Source of the DNA: Candidatus Schekmanbacteria bacterium
GTDB taxonomy: Bacteria; CSSED10-310; JACPHN01
NCBI GenBank assembly: GCA_016188575.1
Contig: JACPHN010000161.1
Location: forward strand, 1 to 60,263
Direction: 5' to 3'
DNA length: 60,263 nt
In this document: positions 11,789 through 50,817 of the stretch, piece by piece
How positions within the stretch are numbered: position 1 is the stretch's first letter
Layout of the letters: each line of letters begins with the position of its first letter
Notes under the pieces: generated by a model
Told to the model about the DNA's origin: nothing
What the model saw: the letters and a program-made list of their open reading frames with translations, nothing else
Database searches by the model: none
Translations under genes and position numbers: made by a program

Positions 11789-14700
11789 TCAGCGGCGCTC
11801 CACTCCGTTCCGGCGCCGCCGATAGCCGCGCGCCTGCAGCGCCAACACCAGCGCTCCGAGCACCGCCGCCAGCGCCACGCCCGCCGCCGGTTGCTCGACC
11901 ACCGGCACAGGATTCGCCACCGTTGGTGTGGACGTCGGCGTCGGCGAGGAGGTCGGTGTCGGCGTGGGCGGGTTCGGGTCCAGCAGCAGTACGGCGCCGG
12001 ATCCGGCCGCGAGCGTCACCTCGGTCACCGGCTCATAGCTTACCGTCCACTCCGCCGGCAGCACGCCGTCCGGCGGCACCGTACCGCCGCCAGCCGGCTG
12101 CGCCTGGTAATAAGTTCCGCCGAGCGCCACGGTTTGCGCGCTGTCGCCCGCATTCACCACTGCCAGCCCGTTGCCGTAGCTCCGCATGTAGACCTGCTGC
12201 CCCGCGTCGAACAGGTCGGCGATCTGCGCCGGTGCCGGCCCCGCCGGTGCGCCGATCGGGATGCCGTATTCCGGCCACCATTCGGGGTCCTCGCCCCACT
12301 CCAGGTTGAGGTAGGTGTGCGCGCCCTTCACCAGGAGATAGCTGCCGACCGAGAAGAGCCGCCCATTGACGGCATCGTTGTAGTAGCTCTGCCCAATCAC
12401 CGCGCGGTCCAGGTTGATCAGCCCGAGCGCCCGATCCATCTGCAGCGCCCAGTCGACCCCTCCATAGTTGGCCCACACATCGAATCCAAAGCCTTCGATC
12501 ATCACGCCGTCCGCACCGCTGTAGTCCACCGCGTCGCGCGAATTGACCCAGTCGCCAACGTTCGGGATGAAGTAGTAGCGCCCCGCGAAAGCGTTCTGCA
12601 CGTGCGCGATGAACGCCTCGATGCGCGCGGTCCAGGCCGCCTCGAAGGTCGGATCGAGCGCCGGGAGATCCGGGTCGTACTGGTCGCCGCCCAGATAGCT
12701 CGGCACGCTGAAGCTGTCGGCGAACAGGCCGTCCGCGTCATTGTGCTCGAGCTGCGAGAGCACCTGTGGCACCCACCAGGCGCGCCAGGAAGCATTGTCG
12801 AGATCCATCAGGTACCACCCCCAGGCGCAGTGCAGGACCCGGCGCGATTCCCATTGAAAGAACCACTCGTCCTGAACCACGTCGTCACCGGGCCATTCCT
12901 GCACCCAGTCGCCGTCGATGATACCGAGGTACGTGCCGTTCGGCTGACAACTCTCGTCCACGAACTGGTATCCGAGGCCGAGCCCGAGCCGGTAGTGGAG
13001 GATGACGAAGTTGGGGTTGCTGCCGCGCAACAGATCCGCGTCGACTCGCCGCATCTTTTGCGTGCCGTCGTAGCGACTCGCGGAAAAGGCGGCGAGCTGG
13101 GGATTGAGGTTGCTGAGCTGGTCGTTGAACACGTGGATGCCGAAGGTGGTGTCGGGCAACGGGCGCGGCCCGTCAGTGGGCTCCGGCGTGGCCGTGTCCG
13201 TCGCCGTAGCCGTTGCCGTGGCGCTGGCGGTCGCCGGCGGCGACACGGTGCCGGTGGGCGAGGGTGTCGGCGTCGCGGTGGCCGCGCCGCCACCAAGCTG
13301 CAGCGACAGGCGGTTGCCTGCCGGCGAAACCGCCACGTCTGCCACCGTGACCAGCCCGTCGGCGTCGGCCACCACGGTGCCGGAGGCGACCAGGCCGCCA
13401 TCGCTCACGCGCCGGTTCGCCCAGTCGACGGCGGCTCCCGGCGCGACCGTGAAGCTCTGTGTCCTCCGCGGCGTCACGTCCACTGTCTGATTGCTGCTGT
13501 CTGTCGTGCGCAGGCTGATGGCCCAGTCGGTAGCGGTGTCCGTGGGAGCAGTGTCCCAGACATTCCAGCTCGCCGACCACTCCAGGTTCATGTTGTATCC
13601 GCCGACACCGGGCGGCGGCACGGCCAGACTTCCCGAGGCGTCGCTGAGCCCCGGAATCGTCTCGTCGCGCAGCACCGTCATGCCAAAGAACGGTCCGCCG
13701 CCGCTATCGCCCACGGTTGGCCCGAGGCCCGCGTATCCGAGCCAGGTATGGTCCGCGTCCACGATCTCGCCGGAAAACGCGCGCCGCCCGTCGTAGAACG
13801 GCGCGTACGCAGGGCTCCCCTGCGACGCCCAGGCGATAACCGTGTCCTGCAGGCCGTGGACGAGAGAAATGTGCGCCATTTCATCTCCCGCGCGGCTGAC
13901 GAGCTGCGCCTGGTGGTCCTGCCAGTCAAAAACGCCGGTGCCGTCGTACTGCGCCAGGTGCGCCGCGTAGACGCCGCGGTTCTCGATCGGCAGATTTGCC
14001 GCCAACGCTCCCCAACGCGGTTCCAGGTCCCCGGTCAGCCAGGGATCGGCCGCGCCCACCGATGAATTCGCGTAGTCGGTCATCGGCTCGCTGCAGTAGA
14101 CCGCGGCAAAGACGTTCGGGTACCGCATGCCGAACGCCAGCGAGCCGCTTCCCCCCATGGAGTGCCCGTACGCGTAGATGCGATTGTCATCGAGCGCCGC
14201 CACGCCGCCGCGCAGGGTATCGTACACGGCCCGCAACACGCGCTCCTCCGTGAAGTTGACGATCGGACCGGTAGTTACGGCGACGTCCGGAACGGAATAG
14301 TCGTGGGTCGCGCTGTAGCCGTAGTACCACGATTGACGGGGGTCGTCACCCCACAGCTCGACTGCACAATAGTAATGGGCGCCGTCCTCCGCCTCGTAGC
14401 GGCTCCCGTATCCCTCGATGTGCAAGAGCAGAGCGTATTCCGCCGGCAGCGCGCCGCCGCACTGATCAGTCGACGGTAGACCCACAAAATAGTTGTAGGC
14501 ATACGTAGAGCGATAGGAATGGCCCAGGTCACAGGCCGGCGTCTCGAAGGTCGGGTTCCAGCGGCTGCGGTCCATGAACTGCGTGTAAACACGCCCGCGG
14601 CCGCTGGTGGACTGCCACACGAGCACCGGCTCCGGCGCAGCCACGGCTTCGGTCAACGGCCCCACGGTGTTTTCAGAGGTGAAGTCAGACGTGTTCTCGT

Positions 14701-27373: not shown

Positions 27374-27474
27374 TAACGGCGTCGGCGGAATGTGGTTTAC
27401 ACCATGCCGAGTGCAATGCGCGAGGGCACTTGCAAAGGAGCATCACCCGATATGCGGCCGGCGCCAAAATAACC
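27374..27474. repeat. R2 MITE-like repeat, copy a (complete, about 100 bp)
   Basis: The ends CGGCGTCGGCGGAATGTGG and CCGATATGCGGCCGGCGCC are imperfect inverted repeats. The interior includes ACCATGCCGAGTGCAATGCG and AAAGGAGCATCACC, which recur in the copy near 41.2 kb. It fills part of the 320-bp gap 27249-27569, which holds no gene. Confidence 0.65.
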
Positions 27475-40590: not shown

Positions 40591-40670
40591 GAGCCCGGGC
40601 GCGCGGGGAGCGTCTTCTCGGAGCAGCGCCGCATGGGCCGGTGGTGGCGGGCGGGAATGTGGCCTCCCAG

Positions 40671-40980
40671 GCAACACTGTTGCCCGGAAGGCAACAGTTG
40701 CCAAAAAAACGCGATTCCGGTGCCTTTTTCGGCTGGTTTCACGGGAGCAGTGTTGCCTCGGAGGCAACACTGCGCGGACGCGAGGGCTCCGGGGCAAATC
40801 GCCGCAATCCGCATGGTGATGCGAAAATAGCGAGTCGCTCGGACCTGGCATGACGCATGCATACGTTCCCTGCGAGAGGGATCGCGGATTCCCCACAACC
40901 CTACCTCATGGAGACAACAGGATGAAGAAGCAAGCGAGCAAGGTCACACCCGAGCAGGTCAAGAGCGTGAAGGCTGGGGC
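40671..40980 (+). repeat. Direct repeat DR1 with palindromes, promoter and peptide leader
   Basis: About 310 bp closely matching 48499-48806 by eye (roughly 85%). It contains clustered GGCAAC/GTTGCC inverted repeats, including a perfect 27-bp palindrome at 40747-40773 (13-bp arms around one G), a GATGCGAAAAT motif, a sigma-54-like promoter, the untranslated leader and the first 19 codons of peptide A. Similarity stops where the peptide C-terminus becomes variable. The two copies flank the whole export locus, which suggests a duplicated cassette or a composite mobile unit. Confidence 0.85.
40846..40861 (+). promoter_or_regulatory. Sigma-54-like promoter of peptide A
   Basis: TGGCATGACGCATGCA has the invariant GG-N10-GC spacing and a 12-of-14 type match to TGGCACG-N4-TTGCA. 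It ends about 60 bp before ATG 40922. The identical 20-bp stretch occurs before peptide C, and a related one before peptide B. An activator site upstream (the GGCAAC palindromes) would fit, since sigma-54 needs one. Confidence 0.6.
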
Positions 40981-41011
40981 TAGGGGCTTCCTATTTATCG
41001 AGGCCAGTTAA
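40922..41011 (+). CDS. Short peptide A with conserved export leader
   Basis: 29 codons from ATG 40922; GGAG lies 8 bases upstream. Leader MKKQASKVTPEQVKSVKAG, then a 10-residue end ARGFLFIEAS. Ending the leader at AG gives Val-12, Gln-8, Val-7, Val-4, Ala-2, Gly-1. This copies the spacing of double-glycine leaders cut by C39 peptidases (LSxxELxxIxGG). A C39 peptidase gene starts 340 bp downstream. The short core may be a real product or the stump of a longer one. This family is not one I know. Confidence 0.7.
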   Translation: MKKQASKVTPEQVKSVKAGARGFLFIEAS

Positions 41012-41137
41012 CTGGCCGTTCGCCGCCGCGCCAGTGGCGCGGTAGAGCCGTCAATGCCCGCCGGGCATGACGGCACCCGGGCATGATCGAGCCCCCGGGG
41101 CCGAGGTCGAACGACCAGGCCGCGCAGGTTCCCGTTT

Positions 41138-41295
41138 TTCCGGCGTCGGCCGAATGTCCGGTGATGCTCCTCTACAACTGTCACAGGCGCCCCCTCCCTC
41201 CCCCCCCCGTAAGCGGGGGGAGGTGAGGCGGGGGGCCGCATTCCACGCGCATGGCGCTCGCCATGGCGTAGAGCACATTTGGCCGACGCCGAATT
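41138..41295. repeat. R2 MITE-like repeat, copy b, with a G-rich hairpin inserted
   Basis: The ends CGGCGTCGGCCGAATGTCC and ACATTTGGCCGACGCCGAA are near-perfect inverted repeats. Reverse-complemented, it matches copy a (CGCCATGGCGAGCGCCATGC, GAGGAGCATCACC). The middle carries a long hairpin of C and G runs (about 41194-41241) absent from copy a. The gap between peptide A and the C39 gene is otherwise empty. Confidence 0.7.
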
Positions 41296-41348
41296 CCCGC
41301 GGTTGACCCTCGGGGGTACCCGCGCTAGCATCACGCTCCGCACCTTCA

Positions 41349-42047
41349 ATGCCACGACACCGCCAGAGGATTGCCGACTTGGCCATCCGCCGTCCATTCC
41401 ATCGGCTCAGGCGCCGGCTCGGGCTGGCGGGGCCCGGCTGCGATACGCCCGAGCTCTTTCAGATCAACGAGATGGACTGCGGGCCGGCCAACCTCCGGGC
41501 CATCGCTCTCGCCTTCGGCGTCCACGTCCCCAACGAGGAATCGCGCCGCCTTACGCAGGCGTCCCGCGAGGGTGCCAGCCTCTCCGACCTCTACTTTGCG
41601 GCTTTGCGACTCGGGTTCGAGGCGGAAATGAATGTCGTCGATCTCTACGACCTCCGGACGTTCGCGGCGGAGCGCCTCCCCTGCATCACGCTCGTCGTCA
41701 TTCCTGGCATGGGTCTGCTGCACTTCGTCACGATCTACGAGGTCGAAAAGCGGCGCGTCCTCGTCATGGACCCCGGCACCGGCCTCGGGTGGTGGAGCCT
41801 GGAGTATTTCCAACAGCGCTGCTGGCGCTTCGAACAACCCGCGGACCCCACCGCCGTCGCTGCCGACTGCGCCGACCCCGAGAACCACGAGCACCTGAGC
41901 GCCGGGCTCGAGAGCTTCGGCTATACCACCGGCGAGGCGGAGGCGGTCCTCGACCGAGTGCATGCCTACGCCATCGACGATCGCCTGAAATACGCGCGCT
42001 ATCTCCGGGAAAGCGGGATTCTCCAGGGAAGGCGCGCGAGCCGCTAG
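41349..42047 (+). CDS. C39 double-glycine peptidase domain protein (front part of a broken exporter)
   Basis: 232 residues to TAG 42045-42047. The C39 active site is complete: FQINEMDCGPANLRA with oxyanion Gln38 and nucleophile Cys44, LLHFVTIYEV with His125, and VMDPGTG with Asp141. These peptidases cut leader peptides after GG/GA-type sites at export. The same reading frame continues after the TAG into an ABC permease. With the stop and one extra G removed, the whole unit is 862 residues, against 870 for the next exporter. As it stands the peptidase would be a free domain. Confidence 0.85.
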   Translation: MPRHRQRIADLAIRRPFHRLRRRLGLAGPGCDTPELFQINEMDCGPANLRAIALAFGVHVPNEESRRLTQASREGASLSDLYFAALRLGFEAEMNVVDLYDLRTFAAERLPCITLVVIPGMGLLHFVTIYEVEKRRVLVMDPGTGLGWWSLEYFQQRCWRFEQPADPTAVAADCADPENHEHLSAGLESFGYTTGEAEAVLDRVHAYAIDDRLKYARYLRESGILQGRRASR

Positions 42048-43938
42048 CTGCTCCGCGGGCTCCTCGATGAACCCGATCGGTTTGCCTTGCCGAGCTCCTT
42101 CGTCAGTCTACGCCAGGATCCCGAAACCGGCGAGCTGTTCTCGCGCGGCCTTCTCGCGCTGTCCCTGCGGCCCGGCGAAGGCCTCCGGGTAACCAATCCC
42201 CCGCGTGTCCGCCCGCTTGGGCGTCTCCTAGGGATGCTCCGCGGGGAGGAGGCCGTGTGGGGGCCGTTTCTGCTCGCGGGCGTCTGCACCGCGCTCCTGG
42301 CGCTGGTGCCGGCGCTCTTCGTGCCGCTCACCGTGGACTGGCTCCTGGCGGCGGCGAGCCCGTGGAGCCTCTACTGGAGCTTTGGCGCGCTGCTTGGGCT
42401 CGAGATGGTGCGGCAGCTTCTGGCATGGTGTCACGCCAGGCTCGGGTCCGATCTGGCCATGGCGCTCGACAAGCGCATCCTGACGGCGCTCTTTTCGCGC
42501 CTCGGAGCGCTGCGCGAGGAGTTCTTCCTGACGCGCCTCATCGGCGACCTCTACAACCGCGTCTACGAGGGGTTCCTGCTGCGCAACTTTCTGACGCAGG
42601 CGGTTTCGGTGATCGTGCTCGACGGGCTGCTCGTGCTCGTTTGCGTGCCGCTCCTCGTGGTCCTCGACGTGCCCCTCGGGCTCCTCGGCATCGGGCTGCT
42701 CGCCTCGTTCCTGATTTTCTTCTTCACCTCCAACCGGGTGCTGCGGCGCAGCTACCGGCGCGAGCTCGTGGAAGCGGGGATGCTGATGTCGCTATGCCTC
42801 GAGGTCCTCGTGGGCTTCAAGTCGCTCAAGCTCCTGCGTGCCGAAGGGCGGACACTGCAGCGACTGGACTACTTCCTGCGGCCGCTGGGGGCAGGCGGCG
42901 TGGAACTTCGGCCAGCGCCAGGTGTGGGTGACGACGCTCGGCTCGGTGATGACCCTCGCTGGCGGATTCCTGGCGTTGTGGGTGGCGAGCCCGAGGATCT
43001 CAAGCGGCGTGCTCTCGCCTGGCCAGGCGCTCGGGCTGGCGGCCGTGCTCCACACGGCCCTGGCGGCGGCGCAGCGCATCCTGGCCTCCGCGGTGGACGT
43101 GGAACGTATCGGGAATCTGGTCGAACGCGTGCTGGAGTTCCAGACCGGCACGGTGGAGGCGGGTGCGGGCGAGCAACCGCCGTCCTCTGGCGGCCGACCG
43201 AGGTTTCGGGGCGAGATCGAGCTCGACTCCGTCAGCTTCCGTTACGTGGAGAACGCGCCGGTGCTTGCCGGAGTCAACCTGCGCATCGACGCCGGGCAAC
43301 ACGTGTGCCTGCTGGGTCGAACCGGCGCCGGCAAGAGCACGCTCGCCCGCCTGCTGCTCCGGCTCGTGGAGCCGCAGGAGGGTGAGATCCGGATCGACGG
43401 ACGCCGATACCAGGACTGGGACCTGAGCACACTGCGAGCCCGGATCGCATGGGTGAGTCCCGAGTCGCTGCTCTTTGACGACACCGCCTTCTCGAACATC
43501 GCCTTCGGCACCCCGGGGGCCGGGCTTGGCGAGGTCACCGCGGCCGCCCGGCTCGCGGGGGCCGACGATTTCTTGCGCCACCTGCCCGAGCGCTACGCGA
43601 CGCCCATCGGAGAACGCGGCAGACTCCTCTCGGGCGGCGAGCGGCAACGGGTCGCTCTCGCTCGCGCGCTCGCCAAGGATGCGGACATCCTGCTGCTCGA
43701 CGAGCCGCTCTCGGGTCTCGATCCCGTGACGGCGGCGGAGGTGCGGGGTGCGATCCGCGAGGCGACCCGCGGGCGAACGATGATCTGGATCACGCATCAG
43801 CCGGAGGACACGGCGGGTGCGGACCGCGTGCTCCTCGTACGCGACGGAACCGTGGTCGAGGCGGAGGCGGAGCACCTGCAGCATGTCGTCCAGGGACATG
43901 AGACGCCCATGCCGGGCCGCGGAGCTCGGGTGCCATGA
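42048..43938 (+). pseudogene. ABC exporter permease and ATPase, cut off by TAG and by a frameshift
   Basis: Continues the C39 frame after TAG 42045-42047. Residues LSLRPGEGLRV lead into about six transmembrane segments (GPFLLAGVCTALLALVPALFV and others). At the GGGGG run 42887-42891 the frame is lost; removing one G joins YFLRPLG to QAAWNFGQRQVWVTT and on to the ATPase. The ATPase keeps Walker A GRTGAGKST, LLSGGERQR, ILLLDEP and WITHQ. Stand-alone translation could start at TTG 42087 (permease) or within 42838-43938 (ATPase). The homopolymer lesion could be an assembly error; the TAG less easily so. Confidence 0.8.
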
Positions 43939-46547
43939 GCAGCGCCCCGGCGCCCGAGGTGTGCACCTGGATCCACCCGTACGAGGGCAAAGCACTGGCT
44001 GGAGCGCTCGATCGGATTGCCCGCCGCACCCGGGCCGTTCGGGTAGCGGCCGCACCTGCCGGTCCGCTCGATCCGGCCGATCCGCGCCACTACGCTGCGG
44101 CGCTCGGCATGCGGCTCTCCTCGCGAGCGCTCGCGCCGGAGGAGCTGGCAGGCCACCTGAGCTACCTCGCGCCGGCCATCCTGACGGTCCCATCCGAGGG
44201 CGATGGCGGTACGCCGCGGGGGTTCATTGCGGTCGTGCGCGCGAGTCGGCGGCAGGTGTCGGTGCTCGATGGCGATGGCGGCGCGCGGCGCTTGCGGATG
44301 GACGAGCTCGTGGCGGCGGCGCTCACTCCCGGGCACCACGCCGAACGGCGCGGGATCGCGCTGGCACTGGAGGCACACGGCCTGTCGCGACGTGTTGTCG
44401 CACGGGTCCTCAGCCGCTACCGCGCCGCCTTCGTGTCGGCGACCCTCACGCGGTTGAGCCCCCCGGCGGTGGTCGCCCCGGGGTGTTCCTCGTGCCCCCA
44501 AAACCCCGGCCCGGCCGCCGCGGCGCGTGCTGTCGACCCCGCCGTCATGAAGGCCGCCTTGATGCACCCGGAGCTGTTTCCCGAACCCTCATCCGGAGGC
44601 GCGAGCACAGCGGCCCGTGGTGACTCCGCCCTCGCCCGGGATGCCAGGTATCTGAGCCCCGGCAAGCTACTCCGGCCGGACGATCGTTTGCAGAGCCATG
44701 CCTGGATCATCCGCCCGATCGGCGCCGAGCTACCGAAGATGCCAGATGGGGTCCTGGGCCCGTTTCGCGCTTTGCTCGGTGCCGAGTGGGGCCTGGGCAA
44801 GCGCATCCTGGCGATCTCGGTGCTCTATGGCCTGGCCGGGTTGCCATTGCCCGTCCTGCTCTACGCCGTCACCGAACAGTTTGTGCTCATGCCGCAGCTC
44901 GGCGCGACGGTCTCCGTGCTGATGGCGCTGGCGATCGCTCTGTTTGCCCGCGAGCTGCTCGGGGTCGTCCGCGAGCTGTTGTTGCTCCTGCTCGCGCGCC
45001 GCAGCGACCTGCGCATCACGCTGGCCTATATGCGGACGATCATGTCCTCGAACGTCCTCGACGTCTCGGGCAAGCAGTCTGGCTATCTTGCCGCGCGCCT
45101 CTACGATACGTTTCGCTGGCGCTACACGCTGACGGGCCAGACCGTGCGGCTGCTCTTCGACGTGCTGCTGCTGTTCTTCGTGGGGTTGGCGATGCTGGTG
45201 CTGGCACCCGTTCACACGGCGCTGGCGGCGGCCGGGTTCGCGGCCATGATCCTCGTGGCGAGGCTCTACTGGCCGGCGATCGTGGAGATGACGAGCAGCT
45301 ACCTCGAGATCTGGTCGCACGCGATGCGTCTGTATCACCAATGGCTCGAGGGGACCGCCTCGATCCGCGTCGACGGCGCTCCGGGCGAGATGCTCCGGCG
45401 CATCGACCGCCTGCTGGCGAGGGACGCCGAGATCGTCATCCGGCTCAACCGGATCCGCAACGACATGAATGGGTGGATCGGGGGGATTGCTTCCGTGATC
45501 GGGGTGGGCGTGGCACTGGCGGCGGCCCTGGCCGTCACGGCAGGGACGATGCCCATCGGCCTCTTTGCGTCTTTCGCCGCGCTCCTGATGATCTTCCTCG
45601 GTCTTGCCGGTCAGGTCGGCACCCTGATCGACCAGATGGCGCAAGGCCGGATGATCCTCGGCCGGCTGCAGGGAGTGACCGGGCTGCTGCGGGCCGAAGA
45701 AGAGGCGGAATTGCCCGTTGCGGAGCATGGCCTGGTGCGCGGCGAGCTGCGGTTCGAGCAGGTGGCGTTCGCTTACCCCGGGCGTCCTGCTGCGATCGTG
45801 GGCCTGGATTTCGCGGTGCCGCCGGGATCTTCGATCGCGCTCGTCGGCCGGACCGGATCGGGCAAGTCGACGGTGGCGGGCATGCTGGCGCGGCTCTTCG
45901 ACCCCACCCAGGGGCGCATCTGCCTCGACGGGATCGACCTGCGCGACTGGCCCCTGCATCGCCTCCGCCGCCTGATCGGGGTGATGGGCCAGGAGTCGTT
46001 TGCGTTCGGTGATTTCCTGCTCGCGAACCTCGTCTACGGGATGGAGTCTTCCGAATGGACCATGGACGACGTCTGGGAGGCGGTGCGCGTCGCGCAGCTC
46101 GAGGAGCTCGTCCGTTCGCATCCCGATGGGCTCTATACCGCGGTGGGGGAGCGCGGCCGGGGGATGTCGCGGGGGGAGCTGGCCCGGCTTCAGCTCGCCC
46201 GCATGCTGTTGCAACGCCCCGCAGTGCTCGTGCTCGACGAGCCGTTCGTGGGGCTTGACGCTGCCACCAAGGAAGCGCTTCGAGCCGCCTTGCCTCGGCT
46301 TGTCGCGGGAAGGACCTTGATCATGATCACCCATGATCTGGACGTTGCCCGGCAGTTGGAGCGCGTCGTCGTGCTCGACGGCGGACGCCTGGTCGAGCAG
46401 GGGACACCGGCGGAGCTCATCGCCATACCGCACGGCGTCTACGCGACCCAGTGGCGGCGCTACCAGGAGGAGCTCGGCCGTTCGAAATTGCGCCCTGACC
46501 TGGACCGGTTTCGGTTCATTCGCGGCGAGGAGGGACAGACGCCATGA
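43935..46547 (+). CDS. Peptide-type ABC exporter with degenerate C39-like N-terminal domain
   Basis: 870 residues; ATG overlaps the preceding stop (ATGA). The first about 150 residues look like a C39 fold without catalytic residues: no Cys in the first motif, and GFIAVVRASRRQVSVLDGD where the His-bearing strand should be. A CSSCPQNPG motif follows near residue 193. A permease region (about 280-560) and an ATPase follow: GRTGSGKST, signature MSRGELARLQLAR (atypical for LSGGQ), AVLVLDEPFVGLD, ITHD. It resembles NHLM-type bacteriocin exporters. It probably binds but does not cut leader peptides. Confidence 0.88.
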   Translation: MSSAPAPEVCTWIHPYEGKALAGALDRIARRTRAVRVAAAPAGPLDPADPRHYAAALGMRLSSRALAPEELAGHLSYLAPAILTVPSEGDGGTPRGFIAVVRASRRQVSVLDGDGGARRLRMDELVAAALTPGHHAERRGIALALEAHGLSRRVVARVLSRYRAAFVSATLTRLSPPAVVAPGCSSCPQNPGPAAAARAVDPAVMKAALMHPELFPEPSSGGASTAARGDSALARDARYLSPGKLLRPDDRLQSHAWIIRPIGAELPKMPDGVLGPFRALLGAEWGLGKRILAISVLYGLAGLPLPVLLYAVTEQFVLMPQLGATVSVLMALAIALFARELLGVVRELLLLLLARRSDLRITLAYMRTIMSSNVLDVSGKQSGYLAARLYDTFRWRYTLTGQTVRLLFDVLLLFFVGLAMLVLAPVHTALAAAGFAAMILVARLYWPAIVEMTSSYLEIWSHAMRLYHQWLEGTASIRVDGAPGEMLRRIDRLLARDAEIVIRLNRIRNDMNGWIGGIASVIGVGVALAAALAVTAGTMPIGLFASFAALLMIFLGLAGQVGTLIDQMAQGRMILGRLQGVTGLLRAEEEAELPVAEHGLVRGELRFEQVAFAYPGRPAAIVGLDFAVPPGSSIALVGRTGSGKSTVAGMLARLFDPTQGRICLDGIDLRDWPLHRLRRLIGVMGQESFAFGDFLLANLVYGMESSEWTMDDVWEAVRVAQLEELVRSHPDGLYTAVGERGRGMSRGELARLQLARMLLQRPAVLVLDEPFVGLDAATKEALRAALPRLVAGRTLIMITHDLDVARQLERVVVLDGGRLVEQGTPAELIAIPHGVYATQWRRYQEELGRSKLRPDLDRFRFIRGEEGQTP

Positions 46548-47761
46548 GACGGTGGCCCATCGAGGAGCTCGACCCGCGGCATTTCCCGGAAACCACCGAT
46601 TTCTTGCTTTCCTACGACCCGCCGGCGATCCGGGTCCTGACCTATCTCCTGGCGTCCCTGCTGGTGGCGGCGGTGGGCTGGAGCTTCGTGGCGCCTTATG
46701 ACGAGACGATCGCGGCGAGCACCGCTCAGGTCTCGGGGCGCCAGTCGGTCCACCACGTCACGGCCATGACCGCCGGGAGGCTCGAATCGGTGCGCGCCAA
46801 GGAGGGGGCCAGGGTCGGAGCAAGCGACGTCCTGGCGGTCCTGGCTGTTCCCGAGCGAGCGGTGGAGGTGCGGCGGATCGCAGCCGAGATCGCGGCGATT
46901 TCGCGGCAGCTCGAGCTGCTCGAGCAGCGCGTCGGGCAAGTCGAGGTCGAGTCGCGGTCCGAGCTGCGGGTGGCCCGCCTCGCCGTCGCAGCGGCGCAGG
47001 CCACCGAGATCGCCATGGCCGCCGAGGAAGAGGTCGCGGGGGCGCGGCTGCGCACGGCGGAGACGGAAGCGGAGCGCCTTGGGCAACTCGGTTACCTGGC
47101 ATCGGACGCGGAGCGGGTGCAGGCGGGGCAGGAGGTCCAGGCGCTGCGGGCGGGTCGAGAAGCGGCTACCGCCCGGGTCAGACAGGCCCGGGTGGCGCAT
47201 GAACAGGCGCGGGAGCGGCTCGCCGGCATGGAGGCGGCGACCGCAGGCACCCTCGCCCAGGCCGCGCTGAGCGACCTCGAGCTCGAACGGGAAGAGCGCC
47301 GTCGCGAGCTGGCCGCTGCAAAGGCCGAGCACCAGCGCCTGGCCCTGAGCATGGAGCGGACGATCGTGAGGGCCCCGGTCGCCGGGCGCGTGACCTCCGT
47401 CATCGACGCCAGTGCCGGCGGCCTGGTTGCCGAGGGCACCGAGATCGCGCGCATCGTCGCGGGCGAGGACGTGTCGGTGATCGAGGCCACCACGAGCGAC
47501 CGGGGCGCGGGCGGCCTGCGCGAAGCGGCCACGGCCCGGGTCACCCTGCCGGCATACCCGTATCAGGACTTCGGTGTGCTCACTGGCCGGGTGCAGCGCG
47601 TGGGCGAGGAGGTGCGCGACACCTGGCGGTTCGAGGTTCGCCTGGATCCAAGCCGCGATCCCCGTATCACGCTGCGGCCCGGCATGGCCGCCGAGGTCGA
47701 GGTGACGGTCGAGCGCACGACGATCGCCGGGTTCGTCGTGAAGAAGCTGCGGCTGCGGTAA
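46544..47761 (+). CDS. HlyD-type membrane fusion protein of the peptide exporter
   Basis: 405 residues; ATGA overlap with the exporter. One membrane helix (about 28-50, VLTYLLASLLVAAVGWSFVAPY), a lipoyl half (GRLESVRAKEGARVGASDVL), a long Ala/Glu/Arg coiled coil (about 105-265), the second half (MERTIVRAPVAGRVTSV) and a beta-barrel (GMAAEVEVTVERTTIAG). Such adaptors link an inner-membrane ABC exporter to an outer-membrane channel; no TolC gene is present here. Co-translation with the exporter supports one complex. Confidence 0.92.
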   Translation: MRRWPIEELDPRHFPETTDFLLSYDPPAIRVLTYLLASLLVAAVGWSFVAPYDETIAASTAQVSGRQSVHHVTAMTAGRLESVRAKEGARVGASDVLAVLAVPERAVEVRRIAAEIAAISRQLELLEQRVGQVEVESRSELRVARLAVAAAQATEIAMAAEEEVAGARLRTAETEAERLGQLGYLASDAERVQAGQEVQALRAGREAATARVRQARVAHEQARERLAGMEAATAGTLAQAALSDLELEREERRRELAAAKAEHQRLALSMERTIVRAPVAGRVTSVIDASAGGLVAEGTEIARIVAGEDVSVIEATTSDRGAGGLREAATARVTLPAYPYQDFGVLTGRVQRVGEEVRDTWRFEVRLDPSRDPRITLRPGMAAEVEVTVERTTIAGFVVKKLRLR

Positions 47762-47805
47762 GAGCTCTCCCCGGATGGCGAGTGACTCGGGCGGTCGATA
47801 CCTGC

Positions 47806-47872
47806 CGCAAGCGGGGGGAGGGGCGGAGGGGGCGTTCTCGCGTCGACGCCGAGCAGGCGGCAGATCCAGGAG
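47806..47872. repeat. R1 repeat, copy g (right half)
   Basis: GGGGCGGAGGGGGCGTTCTC and GACGCCGAGCAGGCGGCAGATCCAGG match the right half of the family with mismatches in the terminal repeat. The left end is missing. It lies 45 bp after the HlyD stop and about 80 bp before the sigma-54-like promoter of peptide B. Confidence 0.5.
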
Positions 47873-47953
47873 TTTGAGCCGGCTTGAAAAATCGAGAGGC
47901 CCTACCTAGACTCTTCGAAGTGGCTCCAGGTAGGCGGCCGTCTCGCAGGGATC

Positions 47954-47969
47954 TGGCATGCCATACGCG
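47954..47969 (+). promoter_or_regulatory. Sigma-54-like promoter of peptide B
   Basis: TGGCATGCCATACGCG shows GG-N10-GC spacing, the first seven bases being the same as before peptides A and C. It lies about 60 bp before GTG 48028, the same distance as for the other two. The downstream GAGAGGGAT and CACAACCC-ACCTCA leader is also shared. Confidence 0.55.
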
Positions 47970-48027
47970 TGACCCGTAAACGAGAGGGATAGCGGGCTCG
48001 CACAACCCAACCTCAAGGAGGCACAAG

Positions 48028-48330
48028 GTGAAGAAAGAAGCGACAAAAGTTCGGCCCGAGCAAGTCAAGACCGTCAGGGCAGGCTCACACGCCAGCGCTT
48101 TCGATCTCGCACAGGCCGCACGAACCCGCACCGAGGTCACCCGGCCTGGGGGTGGGTTCGTGTTTTTCCGCCGCTCGGGCATGTTCGCGTGCCCTGGCCT
48201 GGCCCGTACCAAAGTCTACGCTGAGCCGACGGGGGCGCAGTTGTGGGCAGTGGTATTGCCAGGAACGAAGGTGTCTCTGGCCTCGGTCGTCCCACCCAGT
48301 GTCTCGTTTGTGCCCCACAAATCTATTTGA
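48028..48330 (+). CDS. Peptide B, long member of the leader-peptide family
   Basis: 100 codons from GTG 48028 with AAGGAGG 6 bases before it. Leader MKKEATKVRPEQVKTVRAG, then an 81-residue end with RPGGGFVFFRRSGMFACPG, a single Cys and a Val/Ser/Pro-rich tail (LPGTKVSLASVVPPSVSFV). The leader has the same double-glycine-like spacing as A and C. This may be the full-length substrate of the exporter. No modification enzyme of known RiPP classes is adjacent, so an unmodified class II-type peptide is as likely as a modified one. Confidence 0.7.
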   Translation: MKKEATKVRPEQVKTVRAGSHASAFDLAQAARTRTEVTRPGGGFVFFRRSGMFACPGLARTKVYAEPTGAQLWAVVLPGTKVSLASVVPPSVSFVPHKSI

Positions 48331-48498
48331 GAGGGGCTGTTGTCGAAGTTGTTTCCTTCACGGGCTCTGTCGCTGTCGCTGAATGTACCGCCACTTGGAC
48401 GTCGGCCTAACAATGCCCTTCCGCCACTTCCCCCGCTTGCCAGGGGAGGTGTGGTTGGGGGTCTTCGTGGTGCGCTTTCCGCGCAGGTTGCAGCGTCC

Positions 48499-48806
48499 GC
48501 GCAGTGTTGCCCAGAAGGCAACAGTCGCACAAAAACGCGATTCCGGTGCCGTTTTCGGCCGGTTTTACGGGAGCAGTGTTGCCTCGGAGGCAACACTGCG
48601 CGGACGCGAGGGATCCGGGCAAATCGCGGAAACTCGCATGGCGATGCGAAAATGGCGAGTCGTCCGGATCTGGCATGACGCATGCATACGCTTTGTATGA
48701 GAGGGATCGCGGATCCCCCCACAACCCTATCTCATGGAGGCAACTGGATGAAGAAGCAAGCGACCAGGGTTAGACCCGAGCAAGTCAAGACCGTCAAGGC
48801 CGGGCC
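48499..48806 (+). repeat. Direct repeat DR2 with palindromes, promoter and peptide leader
   Basis: Second copy of the 40671-40980 repeat. The perfect 27-bp palindrome recurs at 48573-48599, and the sigma-54-like promoter and peptide leader are kept. To the left (48410-48498) lies G/C-rich sequence also related to 53599-53645. The gap 48331-48747 between peptides B and C contains only these elements. Confidence 0.85.
48671..48686 (+). promoter_or_regulatory. Sigma-54-like promoter of peptide C
   Basis: TGGCATGACGCATGCA, identical to the site before peptide A, about 60 bp before ATG 48748. See also the shared leader GAGAGGGATCGCGGA and CACAACCCTA-CTCATGGAG. Confidence 0.6.
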
Positions 48807-48837
48807 GGATACTGCGGGCTGGCTGCCTCTCGGCTAG
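48748..48837 (+). CDS. Short peptide C with conserved export leader
   Basis: 29 codons from ATG 48748, GGAGG 7 bases upstream; same length as peptide A. Leader MKKQATRVRPEQVKTVKAG and a 10-residue end PDTAGWLPLG before TAG. Leader identity with B at 16 of 19 positions and with A at 16 of 19 contrasts with fully different ends. The frame after the TAG closes again soon, so if this is a stump, the original tail is no longer present. Confidence 0.7.
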   Translation: MKKQATRVRPEQVKTVKAGPDTAGWLPLG

Positions 48838-48902
48838 GCCAGGCGAGTTGGCCGCCAGCGCCGTTGAATCCATCGGCTGGCGGCCTCGATGCGAGAACGC
48901 CC

Positions 48903-48960
48903 CCATGCCATGCGCATTGCGCTCGCCATGGTGCAAAGCACATTCGGCCGACGCCGAATT
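48903..48960. repeat. R2 repeat, half copy c
   Basis: TGCGCATTGCGCTCGCCATGG followed by CACATTCGGCCGACGCCGAA repeats the right half of copy b. It ends 10 bases before the ribosome binding site of the S8 protease, so it may supply promoter or leader sequence to that gene. Confidence 0.65.
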
Positions 48961-48978: not shown

Positions 48979-50817
48979 ATGAAGAGTTTTCGGTTGCTCA
49001 CATTATTCACGTTCGCTGTGTCGGTCGTCTTCGACGCGGGCGCGGCGCAGGCAGGACAGCCGGACCCCAACCGGGTCATCGTCAAATTCAAGAACCAGAC
49101 GGAGGGCGAGAAGGCCCTGAAGGCGGCTGGCGGCAAGAAGGAGCTCGATCTGGAGCACGTAGGTGCGGCAGCATTCACCGTGCCGCCCCAGGCATTGAAC
49201 GGGCTCCGAAACCACCCCGAAATCGAGTACATCGAGGACGATCCGCCGCGCTATCCGCTCGCGATCGATAGCGTCACCCCCGGCGCGGAGACCTCGCCAT
49301 ACGGCATCGCAATGGTCCAGGCCAACTTGCTGAGCGACGCGGCCGCGGGCACCCGCAAGGTCTGCATCATCGACTCCGGCTTCTCGCAGAGCCACGAGGA
49401 CCTGCAGGACAGCGGCGTCACGTCGAGCTACAACTCCGGCACCGGCGACCCGTTCACCGATCCGAACGGCCACGGAACGCATGTGGCAGGCACGATCGCG
49501 GGTCTCGGCGGCAACAACGAGGGCGTCGTCGGCGTCAATCCGTCGGGCGTGCTCAAGATCCACATCGTCAAGGTCTTCGGCGAGGACGGTTGGGCCTACA
49601 CCTCGACGCTCTCCGCGGCGGCCAACGAATGCGGGAAGGCCGGCGCCAACGTGATCAGCATGAGCCTTGGCGGCGGCGGTAAGAGCCGCACCGAAGAGAG
49701 CACCTTCAGTAACCTCGCCAGCCAGGGCATCCTGTCGATCGCCGCGGCCGGCAACGACGGCACCACGGGCCTCAGCTACCCGGCCTCGTACCCGATCGTC
49801 TTGTCGGTAGCCGCCATCGACGCGAACAAGGTCGTGGCCGACTTCTCGCAGAAGAACGCCGAAGTCGACATCTCCGCCCCCGGCGTGGCCGTGCTCTCGA
49901 GCGTCCCGTGGCGCGAGGACACCTGGGTCACCGTCGGCGGTACGAACTATGCCGGTAACCCGGTCGAAGGCGCTGCCCGCACCGCCGGCACCACCGGCGC
50001 GCTGGTCTTCGGTGGCCTGTGCGATGCGGCGGGAAGCTGGAGCGGCAAGGTCGTCCTGTGCGACCGCGGCTCGATCAGCTTCAATGACAAGGTCACGAAG
50101 GTCAAGTCTGGCGGCGGCGTGGCCGCGGTCATAGCCAACAATGTTGCCAATGAGCCGCTCTACGCGACCCTCGGCGACGGCGTTACCTCCACGATTCCTG
50201 CAATCGGCATCACCCAGGAAGACGGGACCACTCTCAAGGGCAAGCTCGGTTCCTCGGTAACCGTGGTCAACACGAAGGTCTACGACACCACGGACACCTA
50301 CCAGGCGTGGGATGGGACCTCGATGGCGACCCCGCACGTGGCGGGTGTTGCGGCGCTGGTGTGGAGCTATAACCCGGTGTGGACGGCCACCCAGGTCCGC
50401 GCGGCCCTCGAGGCGACGGCTCAGGACCTCGGCACCGCAGGCCGCGACAACTCCTACGGCTATGGCCTCGTCCAGGCAAAGGCCGCGGTCGACTACCTTC
50501 AGGCCGGTGGCGGCGGTGGCGGCGGTGGCGGCGGTGGCGCAGACACGACGCCTCCCGTGATCTCGGGCGTGACCTCGGCGAAGACGAGCTCCTCCGGTCA
50601 GTTCAGCATAAGCTGGACGACGGACGAGAACGCAAACACCGAGATCAAGTTCACGTCCGGCTGCAAGGGCAAGTGCACCTTCCGCGACACTGCGCTCTCG
50701 ACGGCCCACAGCATGACCTTCAACGGCAGCAACGGCACCAGCTACTCCTACAGCGTCAGCTCGACCGACGCGGCCGGCAACAAGGCCACCGCGGGCAGCT
50801 TCACTCACAACAACTAA
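48979..50817 (+). CDS. Secreted subtilisin-like serine protease (S8) with PA insert
   Basis: 612 residues; GGAGGT upstream of ATG 48979. Signal peptide to about residue 25 (GAAQA), inhibitor I9-like propeptide (NRVIVKFKNQTEGEKALKAA), then catalytic Asp132 (IIDSGFSQSHED), His168 (GHGTHVAG), Asn259 and Ser448 (GTSMATPHVAG). A protease-associated domain (about 315-435) is inserted before the Ser. A poly-Gly hinge and a fibronectin-like C-terminal domain end the protein. All catalytic residues are kept. Its place after peptide C suggests, but does not prove, a role in trimming exported peptides. Confidence 0.95.
   Translation: MKSFRLLTLFTFAVSVVFDAGAAQAGQPDPNRVIVKFKNQTEGEKALKAAGGKKELDLEHVGAAAFTVPPQALNGLRNHPEIEYIEDDPPRYPLAIDSVTPGAETSPYGIAMVQANLLSDAAAGTRKVCIIDSGFSQSHEDLQDSGVTSSYNSGTGDPFTDPNGHGTHVAGTIAGLGGNNEGVVGVNPSGVLKIHIVKVFGEDGWAYTSTLSAAANECGKAGANVISMSLGGGGKSRTEESTFSNLASQGILSIAAAGNDGTTGLSYPASYPIVLSVAAIDANKVVADFSQKNAEVDISAPGVAVLSSVPWREDTWVTVGGTNYAGNPVEGAARTAGTTGALVFGGLCDAAGSWSGKVVLCDRGSISFNDKVTKVKSGGGVAAVIANNVANEPLYATLGDGVTSTIPAIGITQEDGTTLKGKLGSSVTVVNTKVYDTTDTYQAWDGTSMATPHVAGVAALVWSYNPVWTATQVRAALEATAQDLGTAGRDNSYGYGLVQAKAAVDYLQAGGGGGGGGGGGADTTPPVISGVTSAKTSSSGQFSISWTTDENANTEIKFTSGCKGKCTFRDTALSTAHSMTFNGSNGTSYSYSVSSTDAAGNKATAGSFTHNN

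What the first reader, a model, noticed from the sequence alone, without database searches (positions are those of the whole stretch)
40922..48837. A family of short peptides with one leader and different ends around a peptide-export locus
Three genes too short for routine annotation (29, 100 and 29 codons at 40922, 48028 and 48748) share MKK-A-x-x-V-x-PEQVK-x-V-x-AG and then differ completely. Aligned at AG, the leader reproduces the spacing of double-glycine leaders (Val-12, Gln-8, Val-7, Val-4, Ala-2, Gly-1). Between them lie a C39 peptidase, two exporter genes and an HlyD adaptor. Established knowledge: C39/ABC/HlyD systems export class II bacteriocins and some RiPPs after cutting such leaders. 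Inference: this is a peptide-secretion system with a leader family I do not recognise.
Basis: partly seen in the sequence, partly recalled or inferred. Interest (0 to 1): 0.92.

Follow-up and report, generated by a model that had tools for sequence, protein, structure and literature searches.

The report
Co-regulated family of tiny exported peptides
A bacterium from a poorly sampled phylum carries five tiny genes that share one export tag but end in different short peptides, and three of them are preceded by a matched pair of DNA switches found nowhere else in its genome, which suggests a dedicated and unusual peptide-release (perhaps signalling) system.

Summary
Three short frames share a 19-residue leader, MKKxAxxVxPEQVxxVxAG, and differ after it. 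The genome holds five such genes: three around the window's exporter and two orphans on other contigs. Changes among the leaders preserve protein sequence (9 residue changes against 18 expected). The leader fits the C39 (double-glycine) recognition spacing, but ends Ala-Gly.

It has two palindromes, TGTTGCC-N5-GGCAACA, followed at a fixed 94-95 nt by TGGCATGRCGCATGCA, which resembles a sigma-54 -24/-12 promoter. The palindrome occurs exactly six times in 9.2 Mb, always as a pair before these genes.

Corrections: the C39 peptidase and first exporter are one gene, broken by an in-frame TAG and a frameshift. The last 81 codons of the 100-codon frame show no codon bias. The exporter is not a member of the NHLP type; an intact NHLP exporter lies elsewhere in the genome.

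Best reading: a sigma-54/enhancer-controlled set of roughly 10-residue exported peptides, most likely signals or effectors. Receptor, modifying enzyme and activator are unidentified. The leader was not found in 84,980 species genomes or in 40 relatives.

The parts
40922..41011 (+). peptide gene 1: leader MKKQASKVTPEQVKSVKAG + core ARGFLFIEAS
48028..48330 (+). peptide gene 2: leader (GTG start) MKKEATKVRPEQVKTVRAG + SHASAFDLAQ...; codons 20-100 not supported as coding
48748..48837 (+). peptide gene 3: leader MKKQATRVRPEQVKTVKAG + core PDTAGWLPLG
40678..40696 (.). distal palindrome TGTTGCCCGGAAGGCAACA ahead of peptide gene 1
   Evidence: six exact sites in 9.2 Mb, 0 in the control
40751..40769 (.). 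proximal palindrome TGTTGCCTCGGAGGCAACA ahead of peptide gene 1 (27-bp palindrome 40747-40773)
40658..40676 (.). third, one-mismatch copy TGTGGCCTCCCAGGCAACA, 20 bp from the distal palindrome (a similar two-mismatch copy sits 20 bp from the C238 distal box)
   Evidence: at this mismatch level single sites are near chance, only the repeated 20-bp spacing is suggestive
40846..40861 (+). sigma-54-like -24/-12 element TGGCATGACGCATGCA of peptide gene 1
48505..48523 (.). distal palindrome TGTTGCCCAGAAGGCAACA ahead of peptide gene 3
48577..48595 (.). proximal palindrome TGTTGCCTCGGAGGCAACA ahead of peptide gene 3
48671..48686 (+). sigma-54-like -24/-12 element TGGCATGACGCATGCA of peptide gene 3
47954..47969 (+). 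degenerate element TGGCATGCCATACGCG ahead of peptide gene 2, which has no palindromes
47884..47912 (+). sigma-70-like promoter TTGAAA-17-TAGACT ahead of peptide gene 2
   Evidence: consensus match only
41303..41331 (+). sigma-70-like promoter TTGACC-17-TAGCAT ahead of the exporter operon
   Evidence: consensus match only
41349..43938 (+). C39 peptidase + ABC transmembrane + ATPase gene (ABC1), broken as assembled: in-frame TAG 42045-42047, change of frame at the G5 run 42887-42891
43935..46547 (+). second ABC exporter subunit (ABC2), 870 aa, without a recognisable peptidase domain, overlapping its neighbours by ATGA
46544..47761 (+). HlyD-family membrane fusion protein, 405 aa

Best explanation
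These are precursor genes of very short exported peptides. The 19-residue leader is the C39 recognition and cleavage tag. The peptidase cuts after Ala-Gly and releases cores of about 10 residues (ARGFLFIEAS, PDTAGWLPLG, PTQAHWIIAA, GSSFIGAWGSAQA), which a two-subunit ABC exporter and an HlyD adaptor carry out of the cell through a TolC-type channel encoded elsewhere. Three of the five genes form one regulon. An activator, most likely an NtrC-type enhancer-binding protein, binds a pair of palindromes and drives a sigma-54-type promoter 94-95 nt downstream of the start of the proximal palindrome. Shared regulation, one tag, several unrelated short cores and no modifying enzyme alongside fit secreted signals or small effectors better than classical bacteriocins. 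Shown: the leader family, selection on it, the private palindrome pairs, the fixed spacing and the exporter families. Inferred: cleavage, export, sigma-54 and activator identity, biological role.
For: Five leader copies under protein-level constraint. [quoted passage not shown] C39 domain with sequence relatives among solved PCAT and ComA proteases; Cys, His and Asp motifs are visible in the sequence. Three copies flank the exporter operon. The palindrome occurs exactly six times, as pairs before three of the genes, with 0 in the reversed-pattern control. Between gene 3 and the C238 orphan only the palindrome (87%) and TGGCATGRCGCATGCA (93%) are alike, at identical spacing, with near-random sequence between. 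Spacings from the start of the proximal palindrome to the promoter are 95/94/94 nt. The genome has rpoN, about 76 strong sigma-54 activator domains and TolC-type proteins.
Against: The C39-ABC1 gene is broken as assembled, so the adjacent exporter may not work. The motif is Ala-Gly, outside the GG/GA/GS set named in PMC6363468. The promoter lacks two consensus bases (14 of 16 on a simple score), and scores that high occur about once per 13 kb of scanned strand by chance. No activator, receptor or immunity gene was identified. Genes 2 and C143 lack the palindromes, and the two orphans lie away from any exporter. No relatives outside this genome, so selection was tested on paralogues only.
Confidence: 0.6

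Rival explanations
1. The peptides are antimicrobial: very small bacteriocins, or RiPP precursors whose cores are modified by an enzyme encoded elsewhere, sharing one leader and exporter as the prochlorosins share ProcM.
For: Conserved leader with unrelated cores, as in multi-precursor RiPP clusters (PMC6363468). A complete NHLP-type exporter exists in the genome. No receptor found beside the window genes.
Against: No RiPP-modifying enzyme family among the neighbours scanned. Cores contain no Cys (except in the doubtful tail of gene 2) and few Ser/Thr. At 10-13 residues they are shorter than typical class II bacteriocins. No immunity gene recognised.
Confidence: 0.25
2. A decaying system: leader genes and control regions persist, but the exporter is a pseudogene and peptide gene 2 has lost its original end, so nothing is exported today or only through another exporter.
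For: Two separate lesions in ABC1. None of the 91 sigma-54 activator domain matches in the same genome has an internal stop, which argues against generally poor sequence. Gene 2 lacks palindromes and codon bias.
Against: The leader is under constraint and the palindromes are exact. ABC2 and HlyD frames are intact and overlap tightly. The G5 run is a typical place for an assembly indel. In pneumococcus a frameshifted BlpAB is replaced by ComAB (PMC7595303), and an intact second C39 exporter exists here.
Confidence: 0.25
3. The palindromes bind an ordinary repressor or activator (for example LuxR-, LacI- or TetR-like) and the -24/-12 resemblance is accidental.
For: The promoter is two bases off consensus. 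The palindrome is long (25-27 bp in its extended form).
Against: The element keeps GG and GC at the required spacing. It is the only other sequence conserved between gene 3 and C238, at a fixed distance. Paired sites about 85-185 bp upstream suit enhancers.
Confidence: 0.25
4. The leaders are a spreading promoter-plus-leader repeat without function.
For: Upstream regions of genes 1 and 3 are about 88% identical, so at least one recent duplication took place. Dispersed repeats are common in this genome.
Against: Only five copies in 9.2 Mb, three beside the exporter. Synonymous bias in the leader. Only the functional-looking parts are kept between gene 3 and C238.
Confidence: 0.04

Closest known systems
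Double-glycine peptides of C39 (AMS/PCAT) exporters, e.g. pneumococcal CSP/BIP/BriC with ComAB/BlpAB (PMC7595303)
   Same: Short precursors with a shared leader type read by a C39 ABC exporter; several peptides under one regulator; broken exporters replaced by another in some strains
   Different: Leader ends Ala-Gly, has Gln-8 and belongs to no recognised family; cores mostly 10 residues; Gram-negative type exporter with HlyD; sigma-54-like control; no adjacent histidine kinase in the window
Synechococcus elongatus EbfG1-4 with PteB (PMC4997328)
   Same: Several small secreted proteins with one GG-type motif and one C39 transporter outside the Gram-positives
   Different: EbfG mature proteins are 6-7 kDa and encoded in one transcript; here each gene has its own control region and cores are about 1 kDa
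NHLP bacteriocin exporter (TIGR03794/03796/03797)
   Same: C39-ABC plus second ABC plus HlyD architecture
   Different: Window proteins score far below all three NHLP cut-offs, whereas the C157 locus of the same genome passes all three
Sigma-54 control of natural product genes by enhancer-binding proteins, e.g. Myxococcus Nla28 (PMC7910581)
   Same: Paired binding sites upstream of a -24/-12 promoter in a genome rich in such activators
   Different: Those targets are polyketide/non-ribosomal peptide genes; no report of sigma-54 control of double-glycine peptides turned up in the searches made

Membership tests
C39 double-glycine leader peptides | hydrophobic residues at -12, -7, -4 and acidic/polar at -8 | tested here: met
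   V-12, Q-8, V-7, V-4 in all five; rule and pockets from PMC6363468
C39 double-glycine leader peptides | leader ends Gly-Gly, Gly-Ala or Gly-Ser | tested here: not met
   all five end Ala-Gly
C39 double-glycine leader peptides | cleaved and exported by a C39 transporter | not testable with these tools
   C39 exporter beside three of five genes, but its gene is broken as assembled
NHLP export system | ABC1, ABC2 and HlyD above NCBIfam cut-offs TIGR03796/03797/03794 | tested here: not met
   ABC1 in fragments at most 174 bits against 853; ABC2 230 against 709; HlyD 46 against 156
Peptidase C39 ABC exporter | C39 domain with Cys-His-Asp followed by ABC membrane and ATPase domains | tested here: inconclusive
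   all domains recognised and one coding region by codon bias, but with a stop and a frame change inside
Sigma-54 dependent promoter | TGGCACG-N4-TTGCW with GG and GC kept at fixed spacing | tested here: inconclusive
   TGGCATGRCGCATGCA, 14 of 16 on a simple score; GG/GC spacing kept; conserved position
Sigma-54 dependent promoter | rpoN and enhancer-binding activators in the genome | tested here: met
   one rpoN, about 76 strong activator domains
Peptide quorum-sensing locus | cognate receptor kinase or cytoplasmic receptor beside the peptide gene | tested here: inconclusive
   none recognised near the window genes; a GGDEF-GAF-histidine kinase without obvious membrane segments starts about 0.5 kb downstream of the C143 orphan only
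Class II bacteriocin/microcin | mature peptide of some tens of residues with an immunity gene | tested here: not met
   10-13-residue cores, no recognised immunity gene
RiPP biosynthetic cluster | modifying enzyme encoded with the precursor | tested here: not met
   none among neighbours scanned; an enzyme elsewhere is not excluded

The most novel reading that the evidence does not exclude
A Gram-negative-type multi-pheromone system: several ~10-residue peptides with one new Ala-Gly leader, exported by a divergent two-subunit C39 exporter and switched on together by one dedicated enhancer-binding protein through paired palindromes and sigma-54, with unrelated cores as separate signals.
Probability: 0.25. 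Interest if true: 0.8.

Novelty: new variant of a known kind. Interest (0 to 1): 0.6.

Why it matters
Peptide signalling through C39 exporters is worked out mainly in Gram-positives. Here one genome ties a new leader family, very short cores and an exact, genome-private sigma-54-type control region together, so the regulon can be read straight from the sequence and tested. It would add secreted peptides to what sigma-54 activators are known to control, and it shows a way to find 29-codon genes that annotation misses: by their shared control region.

Tried and rejected
Leader search in GTDB contigs (84,980 species), in 40 relatives, in viral contigs and in plasmids: no relative. ABC2 search in 386 genomes and in GTDB contigs: no close relative, so the exporter could not be used to find syntenic precursors. 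Downstream repeat D7, first taken as part of the duplicated peptide cassette, is a genome-wide dispersed repeat with about 40 copies; the claim that cores alone vary between homologous flanks was therefore dropped. Looser palindromes (two mismatches) are no more frequent than the reversed-pattern control (31 against 47) and gave no activator gene; the one-mismatch site on C143 lies inside a coding-length frame. Shared neighbour proteins between the three loci: none convincing. Fold of the ABC2 N-terminus without an alignment: pLDDT 38, unusable. Rfam: nothing near its threshold. A lost-stop idea for gene 2, by comparison with C143, was not significant.

Full report
Observation. The three frames exist as stated and the shared 19-residue leader is far outside chance. 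A search of the whole genome (G000, 9.2 Mb, 275 contigs; the window is contig C265) with the leader found exactly five copies: the three in the window and two orphans, C238:51939 (MKKQAAKVRPEQVKTVKAG PTQAHWIIAA) and C143:76322 (MKKQATKVRPEQVTSVKAG GSSFIGAWGSAQA, GTG start). Measured from the consensus, the five leaders carry 26 nucleotide but only 9 residue changes; random placement of the same changes gives 18.0 +/- 2.1, and none of 20,000 trials was as low. This is protein-level constraint among paralogues; no homologues from other species were found to test it between species.

Fit to a peptidase leader. Residues -12, -7 and -4 are Val in all five, -8 is Gln, -2 Ala, -1 Gly. [quoted passage not shown] The spacing is met; the terminal dipeptide is not one of the listed ones. 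A generic pattern of this kind with a Shine-Dalgarno requirement, scanned over the 60-kb window and five further loci, returned only the five genes, though the pattern was written with the family in mind.

Exporter. C39, ABC membrane, ABC ATPase and HlyD domains are confirmed, and the C39 domain aligns with solved PCAT and ComA proteases. The operon is tightly coupled: ABC2 starts at 43935 inside the end of ABC1, and HlyD starts at 46544 inside the end of ABC2. Codon-position GC shows one coding region from about 41391 to 43900 that runs through the TAG at 42045 and then changes frame at the G5 run at 42887-42891. ABC1 is thus broken as assembled; whether in nature or in the assembly cannot be told here. 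None of the three proteins reaches the NHLP cut-offs, while a complete NHLP exporter that passes all three lies on contig C157 without any of these leaders beside it. A frameshifted BlpAB in many pneumococci is covered by ComAB (PMC7595303), so a broken local exporter does not by itself make the peptides useless.

Control regions. The palindrome TGTTGCC-N5-GGCAACA occurs six times in the genome, none in the reversed-pattern control, and all six are pairs before peptide genes 1 and 3 and the C238 orphan. Genes 1 and 3 are recent duplicates upstream (about 88% over 300 bp), so the informative comparison is with C238: there only the palindromes, the 16-mer TGGCATGRCGCATGCA and the leader region remain, with near-random identity between palindrome and 16-mer, and the distance from the start of the proximal palindrome to the 16-mer is 95, 94 and 94 nt. 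The 16-mer keeps the GG and GC of the sigma-54 consensus TGGCAC-N5-7-TTGCT (PMC12316311; TGGCACG-N4-TTGC(T/A) in PMC7910581) with two substitutions. By score alone it is not rare (29 sites of 14 or more in 374,000 positions); its weight comes from position and conservation. The genome has one rpoN and about 76 strong sigma-54 activator domains. Gene 2 and the C143 orphan lack the palindromes; gene 2 keeps a degenerate 16-mer and has a sigma-70-like site. Which activator binds is unknown: relaxing the palindrome gave no credible site at an activator gene.

Cores. Genes 1 and 3 and C238 end exactly 10 residues after the leader, C143 13 residues after it. Cores share no sequence beyond a central aromatic residue (Phe or Trp); pairwise DNA identity over 30 nt is 5-14 positions. 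The 81-residue tail of gene 2 has no codon bias. I first read a conserved block downstream of genes 1 and 3 as part of the duplicated unit, but it is a dispersed repeat with about 40 copies, so homology simply ends at the leader/core border, and a recombination break there is as possible as diversification.

Distribution. No leader relative in 84,980 species genomes, viral contigs, plasmids or 40 related genomes. Short patterns limit the sensitivity, records very near the window's own genome may be left out of these scans, and the nearest kin held are only of the same phylum.

Reading. The best-supported account is a sigma-54/enhancer-controlled set of tiny exported peptides with a new leader. 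Signals or effectors are favoured over classical bacteriocins because of core length and the absence of modifying or immunity genes, but this last step is inference. The kind (C39-exported peptides with a shared leader) is known; the leader family, the core length and the control are the new parts. Literature searches combining double-glycine peptides with sigma-54 or RpoN found no described case; subscription journals are mostly not covered.

Noticed in passing
41225-41300, 48901-48960, 27377-27425 (minus strand): REP-like dispersed repeat of about 65 bp with hairpin-forming parts (...GCGCTCGCCATGGTGTAAAGCACATTCGGCCGACGCCGAATT), about 40 copies genome-wide.
   Followed up: partly
L068 (G000:C157:1301-7753): Complete NHLP-type exporter (HlyD, C39-ABC1, ABC2, all over their NCBIfam cut-offs) next to a CHAT-TPR protein, with no recognised precursor peptide in the scanned locus.
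   Followed up: partly
L024:13164 (minus strand) and L081:10439 (minus strand): Perfect sigma-54 promoter consensus sites (TGGCACGN4TTGCW); the L024 site lies just upstream of an ORF (12460-13077, minus strand) without Pfam match, a few kb from the C238 peptide gene.
   Followed up: no
48979-50817: Secreted-type subtilase with PA domain begins 142 bp after peptide gene 3; a possible processing role was not tested.
   Followed up: no
L025:10453-13035: GGDEF-GAF-histidine kinase about 0.5 kb downstream of the C143 orphan peptide, same strand.
   Followed up: partly
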